From Clostridia bacterium (GTDB lineage: Bacteria; Bacillota_A; Clostridia; Oscillospirales; CAG-382): a stretch of 5,538 nucleotides of DNA. Shown piece after piece: positions 1-5,538 of this stretch (positions within the stretch are counted from its first letter, which is position 1; each line of letters opens with the position of its first letter). Below the pieces are notes generated by a model. The model did no database searches and was not told the DNA's origin. It worked only from the letters and a program-made list of their open reading frames with translations. Made by a program: the position numbers and the translations under genes. The stretch lies in contig JAFWWX010000231.1 in NCBI GenBank assembly GCA_017517985.1, positions 1 to 5,538 of the forward strand, in the 5' to 3' direction.

Positions 1-567
1 CCTACCTGTACTACACTGGGCTTCACAACATATACCTGCGAAGACTGTGGAAACAGTTATGTTGGCGATTATGTTGATATGACAGAACATAACTACAGCA
101 AGGAAACTGTAGAGCCAACTTGTACTGAACACGGATATGCAGTATATACCTGTCCTGATTGTGGCAAGTCCTATATTGGCGATTATAAGGATAGCCTTGA
201 GCATACATATACCGAAACTGTAATTGCTCCTACATGTACTGAAATGGGTTACACTATTTTCAAGTGTAATGATTGCGATGATGAGTACAAAGGTGATTAC
301 ACCGACAAGCTTCCTCACGATTATGATAAGGCTGTAACTGAGCCAACTTGCACAGAATTCGGTTATACCACTTATTCTTGTAAGAACTGTGATGATGAAT
401 ATGTTGCAGATTACACAGATAAGCTTGCACACAAATATGAAACAGTTGTAACTGCTCCTACTTGCTTAACAATGGGATATACCACATACACCTGCGAATG
501 CGGCGACACTTATAAAGCAGATTACAAGGAGCCTTTAGGACATACTCCGTCAGACTGGATTATTGAT
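1..567 (+). repeat. Five tandem 114-nt repeats encoding 38-aa Cys-rich units
   Basis: Units begin with Pro-Thr-Cys at bases 1, 115, 229, 343 and 457, so the period is exactly 114 nt for the first four. The shared pattern is PTCTExGYTxYxCxxCGxxYxxDYxDxLxH, with Cys at unit positions 3, 13 and 16 and His at 30. In the third and fourth units the Gly after the CxxC is Asp. The fifth unit has lost one residue, making CxC (Cys-Glu-Cys) instead of CxxC. A degenerate unit with ECLTCG follows near 604-627. The array probably continues to the left of the window. Similar Cys-rich repeats are common in secreted clostridial proteins. Metal binding or disulfide formation is inference. Confidence 0.9.
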
Positions 568-3500
568 ACACCTGCAACTATCCAGAATGCCGGCGCTAAG
601 CATATCGAATGCTTAACATGTGGCATCGTACTTCAGTCTGCTGATATTGCCCAGCTCGTTGATGAAGACCGCACAGATGAGGATGGTGAAGCTTCGGTAG
701 GTAGCTATAGCATCATTCTGACAGACTCAAAGAATATCCCTATCTTCAACAGCGATATTACAATTGATGTCAACGACAATGTTACTATAAAGCTTCCCGC
801 AGGAAGACTTCTGGACTATGAAGACCAGACAACTATCACAGTATTCCATACTGAAACTCAGGAAGCTGTAACTGACCTTCAGATCTTCATTTATGATGCA
901 TCAAACAATGCTGCAACAGGCGCAACTGATGCAAATGGTCAGCTCAAGGTTCCTAACAATCAGTCCTCTACAGGAGACGATAACGGTACTATCGGAAAGG
1001 ATGAAAACGAAGACAAGTTCACTTTCGTTGTTCGTGTATCCGATAAGGAAAATGTTGTGATTCCTGATTGTGACATTTATATCGGTGAAAGCAACAATAT
1101 CGTAGTTGACCTTCCTGAAGGCGTAAAACCTTCTGCTGAAGCTCCCGTAATCGTAACAGTTGAAGACCAGTATGGTAATCCTCAGAAAAATGTTACCATC
1201 ATTGCTCTCGGCGACAACGATTATATAGAAAAAGGCAAGACCGACATCTACGGTCGCGTAACTCTTCCGATGGTAAGTGAAGGCTTTACCAATAATCAGG
1301 GACATGTAACAGTGGACAATATCAATGTTATTGTCAGCGATGAAATCGGTCTGATAGCTGATGCTTTTGTTAAGCATAATGAAGACGGCACCATTTCGGT
1401 TATTCTTCCTGAAGGCAAAACTATTAGCCACGCAAACAGAACAACCATCACAGTTCTTGACTCCGAAGGTCTTGCAATTGTTGGTAAAACAATTACCGTA
1501 ACTGACCTCGAAGAAAAGACTTACACTGCTGCAACAGATGAGACCGGCATAATTGTTGTTCCTCCTCTTTCGGAAGACTACTCAGATGAAACCGGTATGG
1601 CAGCAGTAAACGGTTACACTGTACTTATCACAGATGAAACAAAGCCTATCGAAAATGCTTTTGTTGAAATGATTGATGGCGTTATCAGTGTAATTCTTCC
1701 TGACGGTGTAGTATTTGACTACCACAACAGAATCACTGCAGAAATTAAGGATACCGAGGGTAATCCCGGAGTAGGTATTACCGTAAACTTTACCGACGGT
1801 AATAAAAATAACGAATCTGTTGTATCTGATGAAAATGGTAAGGCAATTGTACCTCCTGTTCATAAGGACATGACCGATGTCGAAGGTAAAGCAAAGGTTA
1901 ATGGTTATAACGTAGTTATTACTGATGAAACCAAGCCAATTGCTAATGCGTTTATTGAAATGGTTGATGGTAAAATCAGTGTGAAGCTTCCTGAAGGAGT
2001 TACATTCGATTACCACAACAGAATTACTGCAGTTGTAACTGACAGTGAAGACAAGCCTGTCAAGGATATGAGTGTAACTTTCACTGACATGGAAAACAAG
2101 AGTGAAACTAACCTGACCGATGAAAACGGTAAGGCGGTTGTTCCTCCTGCGAACATCGACTACACTGACATTAACGGATTTGCTCAGGTTGACGGATACT
2201 CTGTAACCATCAAGGATGAAAACGGGTTCATTGAAAAAGCATTCGTTACTCATACTGCTGACGACAAGCTTGACATTAAGCTTCCCGACAATCTCCTGAT
2301 CCAGTATTCTAATAGAATCACTGTTCAGGTAACTGACAGAGAAACACAGGCGCCTGTTAAGGACCTCGCGGTCACTATAAACGAAGTCCTTGTTCCAACT
2401 GAGTCTGAGGAAGAAACTCAAAATCCTGACTCTTCAGAAAATAATCCGGATGCGCCTGGTGCAGGTACATCTAATGAAAATGAGTCTGACAAAACTGCAC
2501 CTGAAGCAAAGACCATGACCGGTACGACCGACGCCAAGGGTGTTGTAGTATTCCCGCCGCTTAACGAGGATATTACTGACAACGAAGGTAACTCCGGTAT
2601 CGAAGAAACTAAACCGGGCGCTGGCGAAGATACTGACGGTGACGGAAAAGAAGACAAACCGGGTGCTGATGTAACAACAACTTATAAAGTTCTCGTAAAT
2701 GATACAAAGGGTGTCATCGGTGATGCGCTCGTTAAAATCGAGGACGGCAAAGTAACTGTTACACTTCCTGATGGAAAGACATTAACAACCAGCAACCAGA
2801 CAACTGTAACTGTAAAAGATAACGAAGATAAGGCCGTTAAGGGTGTATCTGTTACTATCAAAGATAAAACCACATCCAAATCCGGTACTACTGATGCAAA
2901 CGGTAAGGTAACTCTTCCTGTTAAGTCATCCGGTGGTGGTGGCGGCAGCTACTCCGGTGGCGGTGGTGGCGGTGGTTCTTATTCGTCCACAACCATTAAA
3001 GTTGTAGATAAAGACGGTAAGACAGTATCCGTATCAAGATCCACAGCAACCAATAAAGCTACCCTTACTCTTCCTGCAGGCAAGAATCTTTTGAAGGATG
3101 ATAACTATTACGAAATCACAGTTACATCCGGCTCAAAGGCAAAGGCAGATTATACTATCGTTCTCAAAGACCGTAACGGAAACGAAGTAACAGGTGTTAC
3201 TGATGATGATGGTAAAATCACACTTCCCGGTGTTGAACACAAATCATACATCTTCGGTTATCCGGATGGAACCTTCAGACCGAACGGCAATATGACAAGA
3301 AGCGAAGCTGCAGCAATCTTTGCGCGCCTCATCGCAGAAGCCAAGGGCGAAACTATCTCTGGTAAATCTTCCTTCAAGGATGTTGCATCTGGTGAATGGT
3401 ATGCATCTTATGTTGCATATCTGGAAAAATATGATGTAATCAAGGGCTATGCGGATAATACATTCCGCGCAGACAATCAGGTTACACGTGCAGAGTTTGT

Positions 3501-3876
3501 TGCAATGAGCGTTCGCTACTATGACTTATTCAGTGATCTTCCTACAGTGTCCAACACAAAGAAATACAGCGATGTATCTTCTAACTATTGGGCAGTGAAA
3601 GAGATTTCTGTAGCAAAAGAAATTGGCTGGCTTAACGGATACGCTGACGGTACATTCCGTGGTGATAATGAAATCACTCGCGCAGAAGCCGTTACAGTTA
3701 TCAACCGTGCAACTGGACGTACTCCTGATAAGGAGCACATCAATGAGAACTATACCAAGCTTAACAGATTCACTGATGTGACTGATAACAATGCATGGTT
3801 CTTCTATGATTGCATGGAAGCTTGCAATACTCATTTAGGCGCAACAACTTCTGACGGTGAAAATTGGATAGACTAA
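1..3876 (+). CDS. Large SLH-domain cell-surface protein with Cys-rich and Ig-like repeats (5' partial)
   Basis: The frame is open from base 1 to the TAA at 3874-3876, giving 1291 visible residues; the start, signal peptide and any N-terminal domain lie left of the window. The Met at base 79 sits inside a repeat and is not the start. Order by visible residue: five 38-aa Cys-rich repeats (1-189) and a degenerate sixth Cys-pair unit (about 190-220); about eight beta-rich units (about 235-1078) with the pattern VxVxDxxxxPVxxxxVTxxD...TDxNGKxxxPP; acidic linkers (800-838 and 860-892) within or after unit six; a Gly-rich linker (976-996); and an SLH module (1079-1291). SLH domains bind secondary cell-wall polymers, so the protein should be displayed on the cell surface. 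I see no LPXTG motif or C-terminal membrane helix. The beta units resemble Ig-like/Big or carboxypeptidase-regulatory-like folds; the exact family and the ligand are unknown. The next gene begins 59 bases after the stop. Confidence 0.93.
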   Translation, partial: PTCTTLGFTTYTCEDCGNSYVGDYVDMTEHNYSKETVEPTCTEHGYAVYTCPDCGKSYIGDYKDSLEHTYTETVIAPTCTEMGYTIFKCNDCDDEYKGDYTDKLPHDYDKAVTEPTCTEFGYTTYSCKNCDDEYVADYTDKLAHKYETVVTAPTCLTMGYTTYTCECGDTYKADYKEPLGHTPSDWIIDTPATIQNAGAKHIECLTCGIVLQSADIAQLVDEDRTDEDGEASVGSYSIILTDSKNIPIFNSDITIDVNDNVTIKLPAGRLLDYEDQTTITVFHTETQEAVTDLQIFIYDASNNAATGATDANGQLKVPNNQSSTGDDNGTIGKDENEDKFTFVVRVSDKENVVIPDCDIYIGESNNIVVDLPEGVKPSAEAPVIVTVEDQYGNPQKNVTIIALGDNDYIEKGKTDIYGRVTLPMVSEGFTNNQGHVTVDNINVIVSDEIGLIADAFVKHNEDGTISVILPEGKTISHANRTTITVLDSEGLAIVGKTITVTDLEEKTYTAATDETGIIVVPPLSEDYSDETGMAAVNGYTVLITDETKPIENAFVEMIDGVISVILPDGVVFDYHNRITAEIKDTEGNPGVGITVNFTDGNKNNESVVSDENGKAIVPPVHKDMTDVEGKAKVNGYNVVITDETKPIANAFIEMVDGKISVKLPEGVTFDYHNRITAVVTDSEDKPVKDMSVTFTDMENKSETNLTDENGKAVVPPANIDYTDINGFAQVDGYSVTIKDENGFIEKAFVTHTADDKLDIKLPDNLLIQYSNRITVQVTDRETQAPVKDLAVTINEVLVPTESEEETQNPDSSENNPDAPGAGTSNENESDKTAPEAKTMTGTTDAKGVVVFPPLNEDITDNEGNSGIEETKPGAGEDTDGDGKEDKPGADVTTTYKVLVNDTKGVIGDALVKIEDGKVTVTLPDGKTLTTSNQTTVTVKDNEDKAVKGVSVTIKDKTTSKSGTTDANGKVTLPVKSSGGGGGSYSGGGGGGGSYSSTTIKVVDKDGKTVSVSRSTATNKATLTLPAGKNLLKDDNYYEITVTSGSKAKADYTIVLKDRNGNEVTGVTDDDGKITLPGVEHKSYIFGYPDGTFRPNGNMTRSEAAAIFARLIAEAKGETISGKSSFKDVASGEWYASYVAYLEKYDVIKGYADNTFRADNQVTRAEFVAMSVRYYDLFSDLPTVSNTKKYSDVSSNYWAVKEISVAKEIGWLNGYADGTFRGDNEITRAEAVTVINRATGRTPDKEHINENYTKLNRFTDVTDNNAWFFYDCMEACNTHLGATTSDGENWID
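1303..2178 (+). repeat. Three consecutive 97-98-aa beta-domain repeats
   Basis: Unit boundaries fall at 1303, 1597, 1888 and 2179, giving 98, 97 and 97 residues. The second and third units are very close: both contain ITDETKPI, FDYHNRITA and DENGKA(I/V)VPP at the same positions, and they are similar at the DNA level as well. More diverged copies lie before them (about 703-1302) and after them (2179-2577, 2674-2925 and 2989-3231). Each unit has the alternating hydrophobic pattern and DxNG turns expected of an extracellular beta-sandwich stalk. The near-identity of the two central units suggests recent duplication. Confidence 0.85.
2398..2676 (+). other. Acidic, low-complexity linker segments with a DxDxDG calcium-loop-like motif
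   Basis: Within the sixth beta unit the coding sequence is interrupted by a Glu/Asp/Asn/Ser/Pro-rich stretch (2398-2514). The unit then resumes with the TDAKGVVVFPP strand and is followed by a second acidic stretch (2578-2676). The second stretch contains DTDGDGKED at 2629-2655, matching the DxDxDGxxD pattern of thrombospondin type 3, OmpA-like and EF-hand-type calcium loops. The linkers probably act as flexible spacers; calcium binding by a single short loop is only a possibility. Confidence 0.6.
2926..2988 (+). other. Poly-glycine/serine/tyrosine linker
   Basis: The codons encode two runs of five and seven glycines separated and flanked by Ser-Tyr-Ser. The DNA is built from repeating GGT/GGC codons. 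It joins the seventh and eighth beta units and probably acts as a flexible hinge between the stalk and the wall-anchoring end. Confidence 0.85.
3235..3876 (+). other. C-terminal SLH (S-layer homology) wall-anchoring module
   Basis: Three GYxDxTFRxxxxxTRxE motifs are visible: GYPDGTFRPNGNMTRSE (from 3256), GYADNTFRADNQVTRAE (from 3448) and GYADGTFRGDNEITRAE (from 3640). The second and third are preceded by the usual SLH first half (FKDV...W from 3373 and YSDV...YWA from 3565). The first motif lacks that half and follows the last beta unit directly. The module ends with an orphan first half (FTDVTDNNAWFFYDCMEACN from 3769) without its GYxDGTF half. As I recall, this half-shifted layout occurs in many clostridial SLH proteins. 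SLH triplets bind pyruvylated secondary cell-wall polymers. Confidence 0.93.
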
Positions 3877-3888
3877 TCTGAGTTTTAA

Positions 3889-3914
3889 GTCCGGAGGGGG
3901 TAACTCCTCCGGAC
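3889..3914 (+). promoter_or_regulatory. Strong intergenic hairpin without a T-run
   Basis: GTCCGGAGG (3889-3897) pairs perfectly with CCTCCGGAC (3906-3914) around an 8-nt loop. It starts 12 bases after the SLH gene stop and ends 21 bases before the next start. No T-run follows; the next bases are GATTATAAAAAG, so it is not a canonical intrinsic terminator. It could be a leaky terminator, a 3'-end stability or RNase-processing structure, or a device that sets the expression ratio of the two genes. No separate promoter for the downstream gene is obvious in the 59-base gap. Confidence 0.6.
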
Positions 3915-3935: not shown

Positions 3936-4445
3936 ATGATGAAAACTAAGATTTTCAGTATGGTATTTGCCATACTCATGTTGTGTTGCAGTATGACCAC
4001 AGCATTTGCTGCTCAGGGAACCGATGGTGATGAGCTCCATGTGGTCGAAGCACAGAAACTTGAAATTCAACTCGGCACAGAATGGGCTGGTGTGGAATTC
4101 ATGCTCAGAACCGATGCCGGAGTATATCCCGGAGTAATTCCCGTAGATGAAACCGGCGTACTTTCATTGGAAATTGGCGGTAGCAAGACTTATATCCTTT
4201 CGTGTTTACAGTCTTCCGTTGATATTCCGGACCTTACATTGTTGCAGGCTCCTGTCACAAGCGAGACTGAACCCGACAAAGATGATTTGGTAGATATCAA
4301 AGATAAAGAACCTGCGGTTCCTACTTCTCACATAATTATGTTTGTCGGAGGAATTGTAATAGCAATTGGAATATTAGTTGCAATTTACATATCCAACAAA
4401 AACAGACAAATTGTGCAAGATGACGACGAAGATGATGATTTTTAA
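3936..4445 (+). CDS. Small secreted single-pass membrane protein with acidic cytoplasmic tail, unknown function
   Basis: I do not recognise a named family. From the ATG at 3936 it has 169 residues. A signal peptide is clear: Met-Met-Lys-Thr-Lys, then a hydrophobic core (IFSMVFAILMLCCSM), then AFAA as a likely signal peptidase I site. The ectodomain of about 100 residues contains EWAGVEFMLRTDAGVYPGV and an IGGSKTYILSC segment, then an acidic Pro/Thr stem. A transmembrane helix follows (IIMFVGGIVIAIGILVAIYI), then a short tail that ends DDDEDDDF. Topology is therefore type I with an acidic cytoplasmic end. The AGAAGG site at 3925-3930 favours ATG 3936 or ATG 3939; a GTG at 3930 overlaps the SD and is unlikely. 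Lying just downstream of the SLH gene, it may act with it at the envelope (inference). Confidence 0.85.
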   Translation: MMKTKIFSMVFAILMLCCSMTTAFAAQGTDGDELHVVEAQKLEIQLGTEWAGVEFMLRTDAGVYPGVIPVDETGVLSLEIGGSKTYILSCLQSSVDIPDLTLLQAPVTSETEPDKDDLVDIKDKEPAVPTSHIIMFVGGIVIAIGILVAIYISNKNRQIVQDDDEDDDF

Positions 4446-4535
4446 GAAAATTCTTTCTCCAGACTGAGATAGAAAGCAAAAATCAAAACTTTGGGTAAAT
4501 ATTTTGTGCAAAACATAAAAACTTTACTAATCGGC
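4446..4535. other. AT-rich upstream spacer, no gene seen
   Basis: These 90 bases separate the membrane-protein stop from the downstream promoter. A weak 6-bp inverted repeat (CTTTCT 4453-4458 with AGAAAG 4471-4476) has no T-run after it, so I do not call a terminator for the upstream gene. A short palindrome, TTTTG-TG-CAAAA (4502-4513), lies about 22 bases upstream of the -35 box and could be an operator, but is too short to claim. Confidence 0.5.
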
Positions 4536-4564
4536 TTGACAAATGGATTATATTTTGCTATACT
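4536..4564 (+). promoter_or_regulatory. Near-consensus sigma-A type promoter with extended -10
   Basis: TTGACA (4536-4541) is a perfect -35 box. A 17-base spacer separates it from TATACT (4559-4564), one mismatch from TATAAT. A TG at 4556-4557 one base before the -10 gives an extended -10 element. The expected transcription start is near G4571. This promoter drives the structured leader and the DUF3268/sigma factor operon. Its strength suggests that control is exerted after initiation, through the leader RNA. Confidence 0.9.
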
Positions 4565-4703
4565 ATAACCGTGACAGGAGCTTGCATCCAGGCTCTCGGT
4601 ACATCGGACGAATTCCCGGTGTTAGACTTGTTCTTGGAAGTGGCAAGGAACCGTTACGGATTTAGCGCACTGAGCGATCCATAATGATGCAAGCCAAATT
4701 GAA

Positions 4704-4729
4704 TATTAAAGCCGGAGGGCTGCTTAATA
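4704..4729 (+). promoter_or_regulatory. Candidate antiterminator hairpin
   Basis: TATTAAAGCC (4704-4713) can pair with GGCT (4718-4721) and TTAATA (4724-4729), around a GGAG loop and with GC bulged. This makes 10 bp locally. It uses AAAGCCGGA (4708-4716), which is also the left arm of the terminator stem, so the two structures cannot coexist. The local fold forms first during transcription. Whether it is an antiterminator or only a transient fold is inference. Confidence 0.5.
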
Positions 4730-4818
4730 CTTTACAGAGTCAATCGTTGGGATGAGACACCAAAATTCCCGACACTATGGCTCTGTATTGTTATTTTTGC
4801 AGACTTTCCGGCTTTTTT
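4708..4818 (+). terminator. Long-range terminator stem with T6 run and branched interior
   Basis: AAAGCCGGAGGGCTGC (4708-4723) pairs with 4799-4815 over 16 bp: nine Watson-Crick pairs with TCCGGCTTT (4807-4815), then GGG with CTT (two G-U pairs), a bulged A4803, and CTGC with GCAG. The run of six T (4813-4818) directly follows GGC. The interior holds a second stem-loop: TACAGAGTC 4733-4741 with GGCTCTGTA 4779-4787, and GTTGGGA 4746-4752 with TCCCGAC 4767-4773, closing a 14-nt loop. It ends 23 bases before the DUF3268 start and before its ribosome binding site, as expected of a transcription attenuator. Confidence 0.7.
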
Positions 4819-4827
4819 CATTATAAC

Positions 4828-4834
4828 AGGAGGT
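4828..4834 (+). promoter_or_regulatory. Ribosome binding site deciding the TTG start of the DUF3268 gene
   Basis: AGGAGGT is a full Shine-Dalgarno match. It lies just after the terminator, with 8 bases between GGAGG and TTG 4842. No ATG is available at this distance, so the TTG start is well supported. Confidence 0.9.
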
Positions 4835-4841
4835 AATTAAT

Positions 4842-5309
4842 TTGAATAAAAAGACTAAAAAAAGAAAGGGATTAAGCGCTGCACCTACCCGTTGTCCGTA
4901 CTGTGGTAGTAGTGTAGTTTTCAGAAGTGCTGACGGTATCTACCAGGATAACAGTCGCGGCATGATGCTCTATGTATGCTCACATTATCCCCAGTGCGAT
5001 GCTTATGTAAGAACGCACGCAGGTACAAAGATTCCTGTTGGCAGCATGGCAAACCATGAACTCAGAAGCTTACGTAAAACAGCGCATCACTATTTTGATC
5101 AGTTACATAAATCCGGATTCATGACCAAGGATGATGCATATTACTGGCTCGCAAGCATCATTGATGCTCCGATGTCACAGGCTCATATCGGATACCTTAG
5201 CGAGTATTACTGTAAGCAGGTTATTGAGAAGAGCAAAGAATATCTCGAAAGGTGCCGTAATAAACGAAAAAACTTTAATCTTTGTAAAGGAGGTGCAATG
5301 GCATCATGA
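4842..5309 (+). CDS. DUF3268-type zinc-finger-containing protein
   Basis: The product has 155 residues and starts at TTG. A basic N-terminus (KKTKKRK, residues 3-9) is followed by a four-cysteine finger: CPYC (Cys18, Cys21) and CSHYPQC (Cys46, Cys52). The CPYCG...YVCSxYPxCDAYV arrangement resembles the C4 zinc ribbons at the C-terminus of type IA topoisomerases, which bind single-stranded DNA. The second half is helical, with ELRSLRKTAHHYFDQLHKSG and a MSQAHIGYLSEYYCKQVIE segment that I associate with DUF3268. The biochemical function of the family is unknown; nucleic acid binding is inference from the finger and basic start. The stop overlaps the ATG of the sigma factor gene, so the two are probably translationally coupled. 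Expression is likely gated by the structured leader. Confidence 0.87.
   Translation: MNKKTKKRKGLSAAPTRCPYCGSSVVFRSADGIYQDNSRGMMLYVCSHYPQCDAYVRTHAGTKIPVGSMANHELRSLRKTAHHYFDQLHKSGFMTKDDAYYWLASIIDAPMSQAHIGYLSEYYCKQVIEKSKEYLERCRNKRKNFNLCKGGAMAS
5286..5295 (+). promoter_or_regulatory. Shine-Dalgarno site for the sigma factor, inside the DUF3268 gene
   Basis: AAAGGAGGTG is a complete SD sequence located in the last codons of the DUF3268 gene. The gap from GGAGG to ATG 5306 is 12 bases, longer than optimal. An ATG at 5298 is only 4 bases away, but it is in frame with the DUF3268 gene and stops after three codons. Confidence 0.8.
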
Positions 5310-5538
5310 AATTAACTGCAGCACAACAAAAGTTGGTAGAAGATAATCTCGGTTTGGTGGGTAAGGTTATTGCGCAAAAGGTCCATGGGCTTCACAATAT
5401 CCCGTACTATACCTATGATGATCTCTTCCAGATTGGATGTATAGGACTTAGTAAAGCAGCAGCAACAGATAAAGGCGGCGTGTTTTCTACCTACGCTTAC
5501 AGACTCATTTGGAATGAAATCTGTGACGCTCTCGTGTA
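5306..5538 (+). CDS. Sigma-70 family RNA polymerase sigma factor, N-terminal part (3' partial)
   Basis: Seventy-seven codons are visible from ATG 5306, in frame 2, and the gene runs off the right edge. The product begins MKLTAAQQKLVEDNLGLVGK, typical of small alternative sigma factors of Clostridia and their phages. It continues into sigma region 2: YDDLFQIGCIGLSKAAA matches the region 2.1/2.2 core RNA polymerase-binding pattern DLxQxGxxGLxxA, and FSTYAYRLIWNEI matches the following FSxYAxxxIxxxI pattern near region 2.3. The -10-recognition and region 4 parts are outside the window. The ATGA overlap with the DUF3268 gene implies co-expression. Its regulon cannot be told from the sequence; a sporulation, stress or mobile-element role are all possible. 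Confidence 0.92.
   Translation, partial: MKLTAAQQKLVEDNLGLVGKVIAQKVHGLHNIPYYTYDDLFQIGCIGLSKAAATDKGGVFSTYAYRLIWNEICDALV

What the first reader, a model, noticed from the sequence alone, without database searches (positions are those of the whole stretch)
4571..4841. Riboswitch-like leader with mutually exclusive terminator and antiterminator controls a DUF3268/sigma factor operon
A branched domain closed by a perfect 9-bp helix (4580-4588 with 4686-4694) is followed by a segment, 4708-4716, that can pair either locally (4704-4729) or with 4807-4815 to make a 16-bp stem ending in T6. The ribosome binding site and TTG start come right after. This is the architecture of a ligand- or protein-sensing attenuator, and I recognise none of the common riboswitch cores. 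The downstream gene family (DUF3268) has, as I recall, a namesake orphan RNA motif, so this may be a member whose ligand is unknown. If the leader senses something, the output is a sigma factor, so one RNA switch would reprogramme transcription.
Basis: partly seen in the sequence, partly recalled or inferred. Interest (0 to 1): 0.85.

Follow-up and report, generated by a model that had tools for sequence, protein, structure and literature searches.

The report
Known orphan RNA with conserved terminator
The stretch is a copy of a known but unexplained bacterial RNA (DUF3268 RNA) followed by a conserved stop-signal hairpin placed between its promoter and its gene, so it probably decides whether a DUF3268/sigma-factor operon is switched on; in five relatives looked at more widely that operon sits beside secretion-system genes.

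Summary
Window 4573-4695 is Rfam RF02966, DUF3268 RNA (103.9 bits, cut-off 65.3), a known orphan whose k-junction is crystallised but which has no assigned function (PMC10573300). A sigma-A-type promoter lies just upstream (4536-4564). Downstream is a conserved domain that the Rfam model omits (4706-4818): a terminator stem with U-tract enclosing a hairpin, then an RBS and DUF3268. A model of this domain hits 67 of 78 DUF3268 loci, a model of the RNA 69 of 78. A small local hairpin, looped by GGAA in 40 of 59 leaders, uses the terminator's 5' arm. Most likely function: a transcription attenuator, off by default. The effector is unknown and switching is not shown. The RNA follows DUF3268 rather than sigma: 11 of 12 loci lacking sigma still have it. 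In 5 of 5 wider contexts the operon stands beside a type IV secretion module without a nearby PF03432 relaxase. The family is known; the platform and locus context are added here.

The parts
4536..4564 (+). sigma-A-type promoter: TTGACA 4536-4541, 17-nt spacer, TATACT 4559-4564
   Evidence: 11 of 12 matches, the only promoter-like site in 4440-4860, although shuffles give a mean of 1.1; at least 8 of 12 matches in 55 of 57 leaders scored, window included, 17-nt spacer in 56, 8 nt between -10 and RNA in 43
4573..4695 (+). sensor-like domain = Rfam RF02966 DUF3268 RNA, complete (model 1-121); P1 4580-4588/4686-4694, P2 4597-4600/4650-4653, P3 4601-4607/4616-4622, P4 4627-4633/4641-4647, P5 4658-4666/4674-4680
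   Evidence: pair counts; own model R1 108.3 bits
4625..4649 (+). k-junction signature: GA 4625-4626 facing GA 4648-4649 beside P4 in the three-way junction
   Evidence: read; these columns invariant or at least 90% conserved in 41 sequences; k-junction of this RNA solved as 8ITS (PMC10573300, passages)
4704..4729 (+). local hairpin (candidate antiterminator): AGCC 4710-4713 / GGAG loop / GGCU 4718-4721 with A/U flank; uses the terminator's 5' arm
4706..4818 (+). terminator domain: outer stem 4708-4723 with 4799-4815, U-tract 4813-4818
   Evidence: model R2 103.2 bits in window, 67 of 78 loci at E<0.05; the simple scan finds no terminator because its loop limit is 8
4733..4787 (+). inner hairpin held inside the terminator loop, ACAGAGUCA/UGGCUCUGU stem, followed by its own U-rich run 4788-4798
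   Evidence: 98.3% of cells paired in the basal helix
4828..4833 (+). ribosome-binding site AGGAGG
   Evidence: read
4842..5309 (+). DUF3268 zinc-finger protein, 155 aa, TTG start
   Evidence: PF11672, E 1.1e-52
5306..5538 (+). sigma-70-like gene, overlaps DUF3268 by 4 nt, cut off by the window end
   Evidence: (Sigma70_r2, E 1.9e-8); complete relative in L001
3930..4445 (+). upstream neighbour: protein with signal-peptide-like start, one membrane segment and acidic tail (my reading of the sequence), no Pfam match
   Evidence: related gene upstream in many loci
1..3876 (+). upstream neighbour: large surface protein with Big_1 and SLH domains (5' end outside window)

Best explanation
A cis-acting transcription attenuator of the DUF3268 operon. 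A constitutive-looking promoter starts the RNA a few bases before the DUF3268 domain. That domain folds as a three-dimensional sensor (k-junction core), the local hairpin forms next, and RNA polymerase then makes the terminator, whose 3' arm displaces the local hairpin and stops transcription before the RBS. When the sensor holds its effector, the local hairpin (usually with a GNRA-type GGAA loop) is presumed to be held long enough for polymerase to pass, so DUF3268 and, in this genome, the sigma factor are made. Shown by sequence and comparison: the parts, their order and their conservation. Inferred: that termination happens, that the sensor controls it, and that the effector turns expression on. 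Effector, as a guess: small molecule about 0.4, DUF3268 or another locus-encoded protein about 0.35, other about 0.25.
For: Rfam hit. Terminator domain before DUF3268 in 67 of 78 loci; RNA in 69 of 78 at E<=1e-10, and three of the other nine begin too near a contig end. Compensatory pair changes in sensor and terminator. Promoter layout in 55 of 57. Equilibrium folding of growing transcripts: local hairpin about 0.98 up to 4797, 0.002 at 4809, terminator 1.0 from 4812. Two divergent leaders (L046, L056) keep the terminator although the sensor is degenerate. The terminator lies between the promoter and its own gene, which makes sense if read-through is regulated or leaky.
Against: No transcript, 3' end or binding data. 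Sensor and terminator share no paired bases, and I found no supported long-range pairing. The local hairpin is weak and its covariation modest; its loop in the window is GGAG, not GNRA. P1 is absent from the window's single-sequence fold. Single-pair covariation in P1 and terminator did not pass the tree-based null. In a few relatives the outer stem is short, missing or of another kind (L109, L123, L126, L130, L133), though R2 still scores in the loci of two of them (L042 for L109, L051 for L133).
Confidence: 0.7

Rival explanations
1. Protein autoregulation: DUF3268 (a zinc-ribbon protein), or another protein of the same locus, binds the RNA and sets termination, as ribosomal-protein leaders do. 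This is a version of the attenuator with the effector named, so its odds overlap with the best explanation.
For: Strict link to one gene: of 68 RNA places examined 64 had DUF3268 downstream; the other four were three contig ends and one false sub-threshold hit. Four new RNA-first loci with downstream sequence all have DUF3268 (L139, L141, L142, L168, seen). Of DUF3268 relatives elsewhere, the four regions checked (three plasmid, one phage clone) hold no RNA.
Against: yjdF shows that a small-molecule RNA can also be tied to one gene of unknown function (PMC4793209, abstract start only). The predicted DUF3268 fold is of low confidence (mean pLDDT 69) and matched nothing at E<=0.001. Relatives of DUF3268 also occur in 64 plasmid and 541 phage records, so binding this RNA is unlikely to be a need of the whole family.
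Confidence: 0.35
2. The terminated transcript of about 250 nt is a trans-acting small RNA (Rfam types the family 'Gene; sRNA') and read-through to DUF3268 is incidental.
For: Own promoter and terminator; Rfam type.
Against: Same place before DUF3268 wherever the contig goes on, with an RBS soon after the terminator in the window and in many leaders printed; no other promoter-like site between it and the gene in the window. The RNA-first searches (1,678 genome scans, samples overlapping, strict filters) gave no true RNA without DUF3268 except where the contig ends.
Confidence: 0.12
3. Polymerase-modifying antitermination: the sensor acts on RNA polymerase itself, like put or EAR elements (recalled), rather than by refolding the local hairpin.
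For: Sensor and terminator share no paired bases; the sensor lies just upstream of a strong terminator; a short simple terminator replaces the usual one in L079.
Against: In most loci the terminator is one conserved domain rather than arbitrary terminators (67 of 78), and its inner hairpin is conserved in sequence as well as pairing.
Confidence: 0.15

Closest known systems
DUF3268 RNA, Rfam RF02966
   Same: Same sequence and structure family: 103.9 bits against a cut-off of 65.3, full model length; k-junction GA signature present; DUF3268 gene follows
   Different: Nothing notable in the 121-nt domain. The conserved terminator domain downstream is outside the Rfam model
TPP riboswitch (shares a k-junction)
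   Same: Three-way junction with tandem GA pairs, structured domain in a leader; [quoted passage not shown] coli TPP switch with about ten-fold weaker binding (PMC10573300, passages)
   Different: No TPP match by Rfam; different genes
yjdF motif RNA
   Same: An orphan leader tied almost exclusively to one gene of unknown function (PMC4793209, abstract start)
   Different: Different RNA family and gene; binding compounds reported for yjdF, none here
Ribosomal-protein leaders and T-boxes (recalled)
   Same: Leader with a terminator/antiterminator choice
   Different: No Rfam match to any such family; no ribosomal or amino-acid genes downstream in the window

Membership tests
RF02966 DUF3268 RNA | Covariance-model score at or above the gathering cut-off | tested here: met
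   103.9 vs 65.3 bits, model 1-121
RF02966 DUF3268 RNA | Consensus helices with compensatory change among relatives | tested here: met
   24 of 34 pairs with both-side changes, 41 sequences; only 3 pairs pass the stricter tree null; the window's own minimum-energy fold lacks P1
RF02966 DUF3268 RNA | k-junction tandem GA pairs | tested here: met
   sequence only: GA 4625-4626 / GA 4648-4649; folding not tested
Transcription-attenuating leader | Promoter, structured domain, intrinsic terminator, then RBS and gene on one strand | tested here: met
Transcription-attenuating leader | Terminator and alternative helix conserved and exclusive | tested here: inconclusive
   terminator supported; local hairpin conserved but covariation weak
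Transcription-attenuating leader | Regulated read-through | not testable with these tools
   needs transcription assays
Riboswitch | Direct, specific binding of a small molecule or ion | not testable with these tools
   no ligand known; folding of the k-junction by Mg2+/Na+ is reported but not as a regulatory ligand (PMC10573300)
Integrative and conjugative element (for the locus) | T4SS ATPase and coupling protein | tested here: met
   G001: PF19044 and PF02534, CD1115-family VirD4 above cut-off, VirB4 models below theirs; related genes in 5 of 5 contexts
Integrative and conjugative element (for the locus) | Relaxase beside the T4SS | tested here: not met
   PF03432: in 5 of 5 genomes the nearest match is at least 100 kb away or on another contig; other relaxase families not tested
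Integrative and conjugative element (for the locus) | Adjacent integrase | tested here: inconclusive
   PF00589 within 25 kb of the RNA in G001 and G068, none listed in the fetched stretches of G014, G009 and G048, but the list of matches was cut

The most novel reading that the evidence does not exclude
DUF3268 RNA is a dedicated switch of a clostridial type IV secretion/adhesin locus: its sensor reads a signal of contact, DNA or envelope state (a locus-encoded protein or an unknown small molecule) and, through a tetraloop-capped hairpin that competes with a terminator, turns on DUF3268 and a sigma factor that reprogrammes transcription of the locus.
Probability: 0.25. Interest if true: 0.8.

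Novelty: new member of a known kind. Interest (0 to 1): 0.5.

Why it matters
DUF3268 RNA is a structurally studied orphan with no assigned function (PMC10573300). Showing that a conserved terminator domain follows it, that it goes with DUF3268 rather than with the sigma factor, and that in five genomes looked at the locus is a secretion/adhesin module gives a concrete readout (termination near the U-tract) and a short list of candidate effectors to test.

Tried and rejected
Other riboswitch classes: a permissive Rfam scan of 4500-4900 gave only chance-level matches besides RF02966. A phage or virus origin: in viral contigs 31 stretches matched a peptide pattern but none was confirmed as a DUF3268 relative, and a pattern for the RNA core had no match there. 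Phage and plasmid records do hold DUF3268 relatives, all under 60% identical; only four of those regions were checked for RNA, with no Rfam match at E<=0.5. Integrative conjugative element: my first reading, withdrawn to 'T4SS-like locus' after no PF03432 relaxase was found nearby. Long-range pairing between sensor and terminator domain: a scan of 5-mers listed six pairs of places at 0.75 or more of 40 sequences; the best two overlap and give GGCUYU 4591-4596 with AGAGUC 4736-4741 (0.95 and 0.975). Both are nearly invariant, about what chance allows by my rough estimate, and the pairing is broken in L110, so it is not claimed. Sigma-specific promoters upstream of the adhesin: sequences printed, nothing convincing seen, no motif test run. 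Structure of DUF3268: mean pLDDT 69, no PDB match at E<=0.001. Defence-system models: none for DUF3268, sigma or signal peptidase. L140 was dropped as a false match inside what looks like coding sequence (32 bits, below the cut-off). One sub-threshold hit, G003:C31:146-235 (61.5 bits), was not examined; its downstream side has at most 145 bases of contig.

Full report
What is there. The window 4573-4695 is a full-length member of Rfam RF02966, DUF3268 RNA (103.9 bits, cut-off 65.3). A promoter TTGACA-17-TATACT lies at 4536-4564; 55 of 57 leaders scored, window included, match it in at least 8 of 12 letters at a nearly fixed distance, so the RNA probably begins within a few bases of the transcription start. 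Downstream come DUF3268 (PF11672) and a sigma-70-like gene cut by the window end.

The part that Rfam does not model. Between RNA and gene lies 4706-4818: a long stem with a U-tract (4708-4723 with 4799-4815, T6 at 4813-4818) that encloses a conserved hairpin (4733-4787) followed by its own U-rich run. I built a model from 28 such sequences, window included (R2). Of the 34 relatives' domains listed I left out seven unusual ones (L086, L112, L115, L116, L121, L124, L129); L079, L109, L123, L126, L130 and L133 had been set aside before. R2 hits 67 of 78 DUF3268 loci at E<0.05, upstream of DUF3268, and the window at 103.2 bits. Because the domain is nearly palindromic, R2 also scores on the opposite strand (39.7 bits in the window). 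The 11 loci without a hit at that level are L010 and L025 (near contig ends), L027, L054 and L055 (short or different platforms), L057, L062, L063, L072, L077 and L078.

Conservation. The 78 loci come from one scan of bacterial and archaeal species genomes with an alignment of the window protein and 33 of the 120 homologues listed (of 324 found). The scan uses two conserved peptide patterns, so distant DUF3268 proteins are not sampled. A sensor model (R1) finds 69 of 78 at E<=1e-10, L056 weakly (E 0.047), and not L010, L025, L060 (contig ends), L046 (degenerate sensor, same terminator), L057, L072, L077 or L078. These counts are partly circular, since many of the loci were used to build the models; Rfam's own model agrees (38 of 39 genomes with a match, 33 over the cut-off; 27 of 34, 23 over it; one genome is in both calls). 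Pair counts: sensor 24 of 34 pairs changed on both sides, score 0.420 against 0.208 shuffled; terminator domain 10 of 25, 0.250 against 0.181; local hairpin 1 of 4, 0.198 against 0.143, reached by 13 of 500 shuffles. RNAalifold recovers P1, P3 and P4 on 56 sensor rows, but on 50 terminator rows only the outer stem. Before the tree-based test I left out 15 named leaders with odd or missing platforms and one identical row, keeping 40; only three pairs, all in P3 and P4, passed. The window's own minimum-energy fold pairs the 5' strand of P1 elsewhere.

The competing helices. In the window AGCC 4710-4713 can pair with GGCU 4718-4721 or with the terminator's 3' arm. At the first of these positions the three partners change together in some relatives (A/U/U to G/C/C in 4 of 40 sequences). 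Of 59 leaders listed, near relatives included, the local loop is GGAA in 40, GAGA in 2, GTGA in 1 and starts GTAA in 1, all GNRA; it is GGAG in the window and two near relatives, and something else in the other 12. Equilibrium folding of growing transcripts gives the local hairpin up to 4797 and the terminator from 4812. Over 51 leaders the local segment averages -7.7 kcal/mol against -4.8 for shuffles, and only 15 of 51 are matched by no more than 5 of 100 shuffles. So the terminator wins unless something intervenes, and the local hairpin as antiterminator is a proposal.

Who is the output. With profiles built from the loci, sigma is found in 63 of 78. In 12 (L027, L030, L032, L033, L034, L040, L042, L054, L055, L061, L064, L072) a signal peptidase is found after DUF3268 without a sigma hit, and 11 of these have the RNA. 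L043 and L076 end inside or just after DUF3268, and L077 has neither gene by these profiles. Of 68 RNA places examined (67 hits in relatives plus the window), 64 have DUF3268 downstream; L118, L144 and L145 run out of contig and L140 is false. RNA-first searches give 6 of 299, 7 of 250, 1 of 38, 4 of 391, 1 of 250, 5 of 201 and 1 of 249 genomes with a match at E<=0.001, samples overlapping; the 6 include L140. Those searches use strict filters and score few candidates per genome, so weak relatives could be missed. New loci among them with downstream sequence (L139, L141, L142, L168) all carry DUF3268; L145 and L170 end at contig edges.

Where it lives. I fetched wider surroundings for five genomes (G001, G009, G014, G048, G068). 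In all five, genes for a large membrane protein, an NlpC/P60 protein, a VirB4-like ATPase, a VirD4-like coupling protein and an S1-domain protein precede the DUF3268-sigma pair in the same order (domains). The membrane-protein neighbour of DUF3268 is seen in four of them and in the fifth (L074). An adhesin-like gene is present in all five but in different places: just upstream in G001, G009 and G014, downstream in G048, and before the secretion genes in G068. The label VirB6-like that I used in scripts for the large membrane protein rests on its size and place; Pfam and NCBIfam gave no match. No PF03432 relaxase is nearby, so I do not call the locus a conjugative element. The window itself shows only the adhesin and membrane protein, and no genome is held for it. 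L001, whose DUF3268 is 94% identical, supplies the inferred surroundings; L145 (genome G810) has a nearly identical leader.

Literature. Five held papers mention DUF3268. Of two I saw passages only: PMC8191799 reports a probable k-junction, and PMC10573300 solves it and states that no function has been ascribed. The other three I saw only in the listing. The original 2017 description is not held, so what it says about gene context or terminators I do not know, and I make no claim that these features are unreported.

Verdict. A real, known orphan RNA in a conserved attenuator-like leader.

Noticed in passing
L046:5750-5960 and L056:5758-5951: Leaders whose sensor domain is reduced or strongly diverged while the terminator domain before DUF3268 is kept.
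   Followed up: partly
L126:1409-1610, and L123 on the reverse strand: Platform without U-tract: a long hairpin ends right before the SD, so control may be translational there.
   Followed up: partly
L132:1501-2350 (genome G044): Another open reading frame seems to lie between terminator and DUF3268, which starts about 700 nt after the RNA.
   Followed up: no
L146:1674-18381 and four other genomes: T4SS-like module with VirB4/VirD4-like genes but no PF03432 relaxase nearby; a protein with an S1 RNA-binding domain (PF00575 in G001) has relatives in all five.
   Followed up: partly
4591-4596 and 4736-4741: Nearly invariant sensor segment GGCUYU could pair with nearly invariant AGAGUC of the inner hairpin; no covariation and one clear break, may be chance.
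   Followed up: partly
1-540: Repeated cysteine-pair motifs (CxxC) in the N-terminal part of the surface protein, ahead of Big_1 and SLH domains.
   Followed up: no
3889-3914: Inverted repeat GTCCGGAG...CTCCGGAC between the surface-protein gene and the membrane-protein gene.
   Followed up: no
L162:3971-5042 (Vescimonas plasmid pMM35_02): DUF3268 followed by a sigma-70 gene, with pilin and sortase genes upstream, but no RF02966 match.
   Followed up: partly
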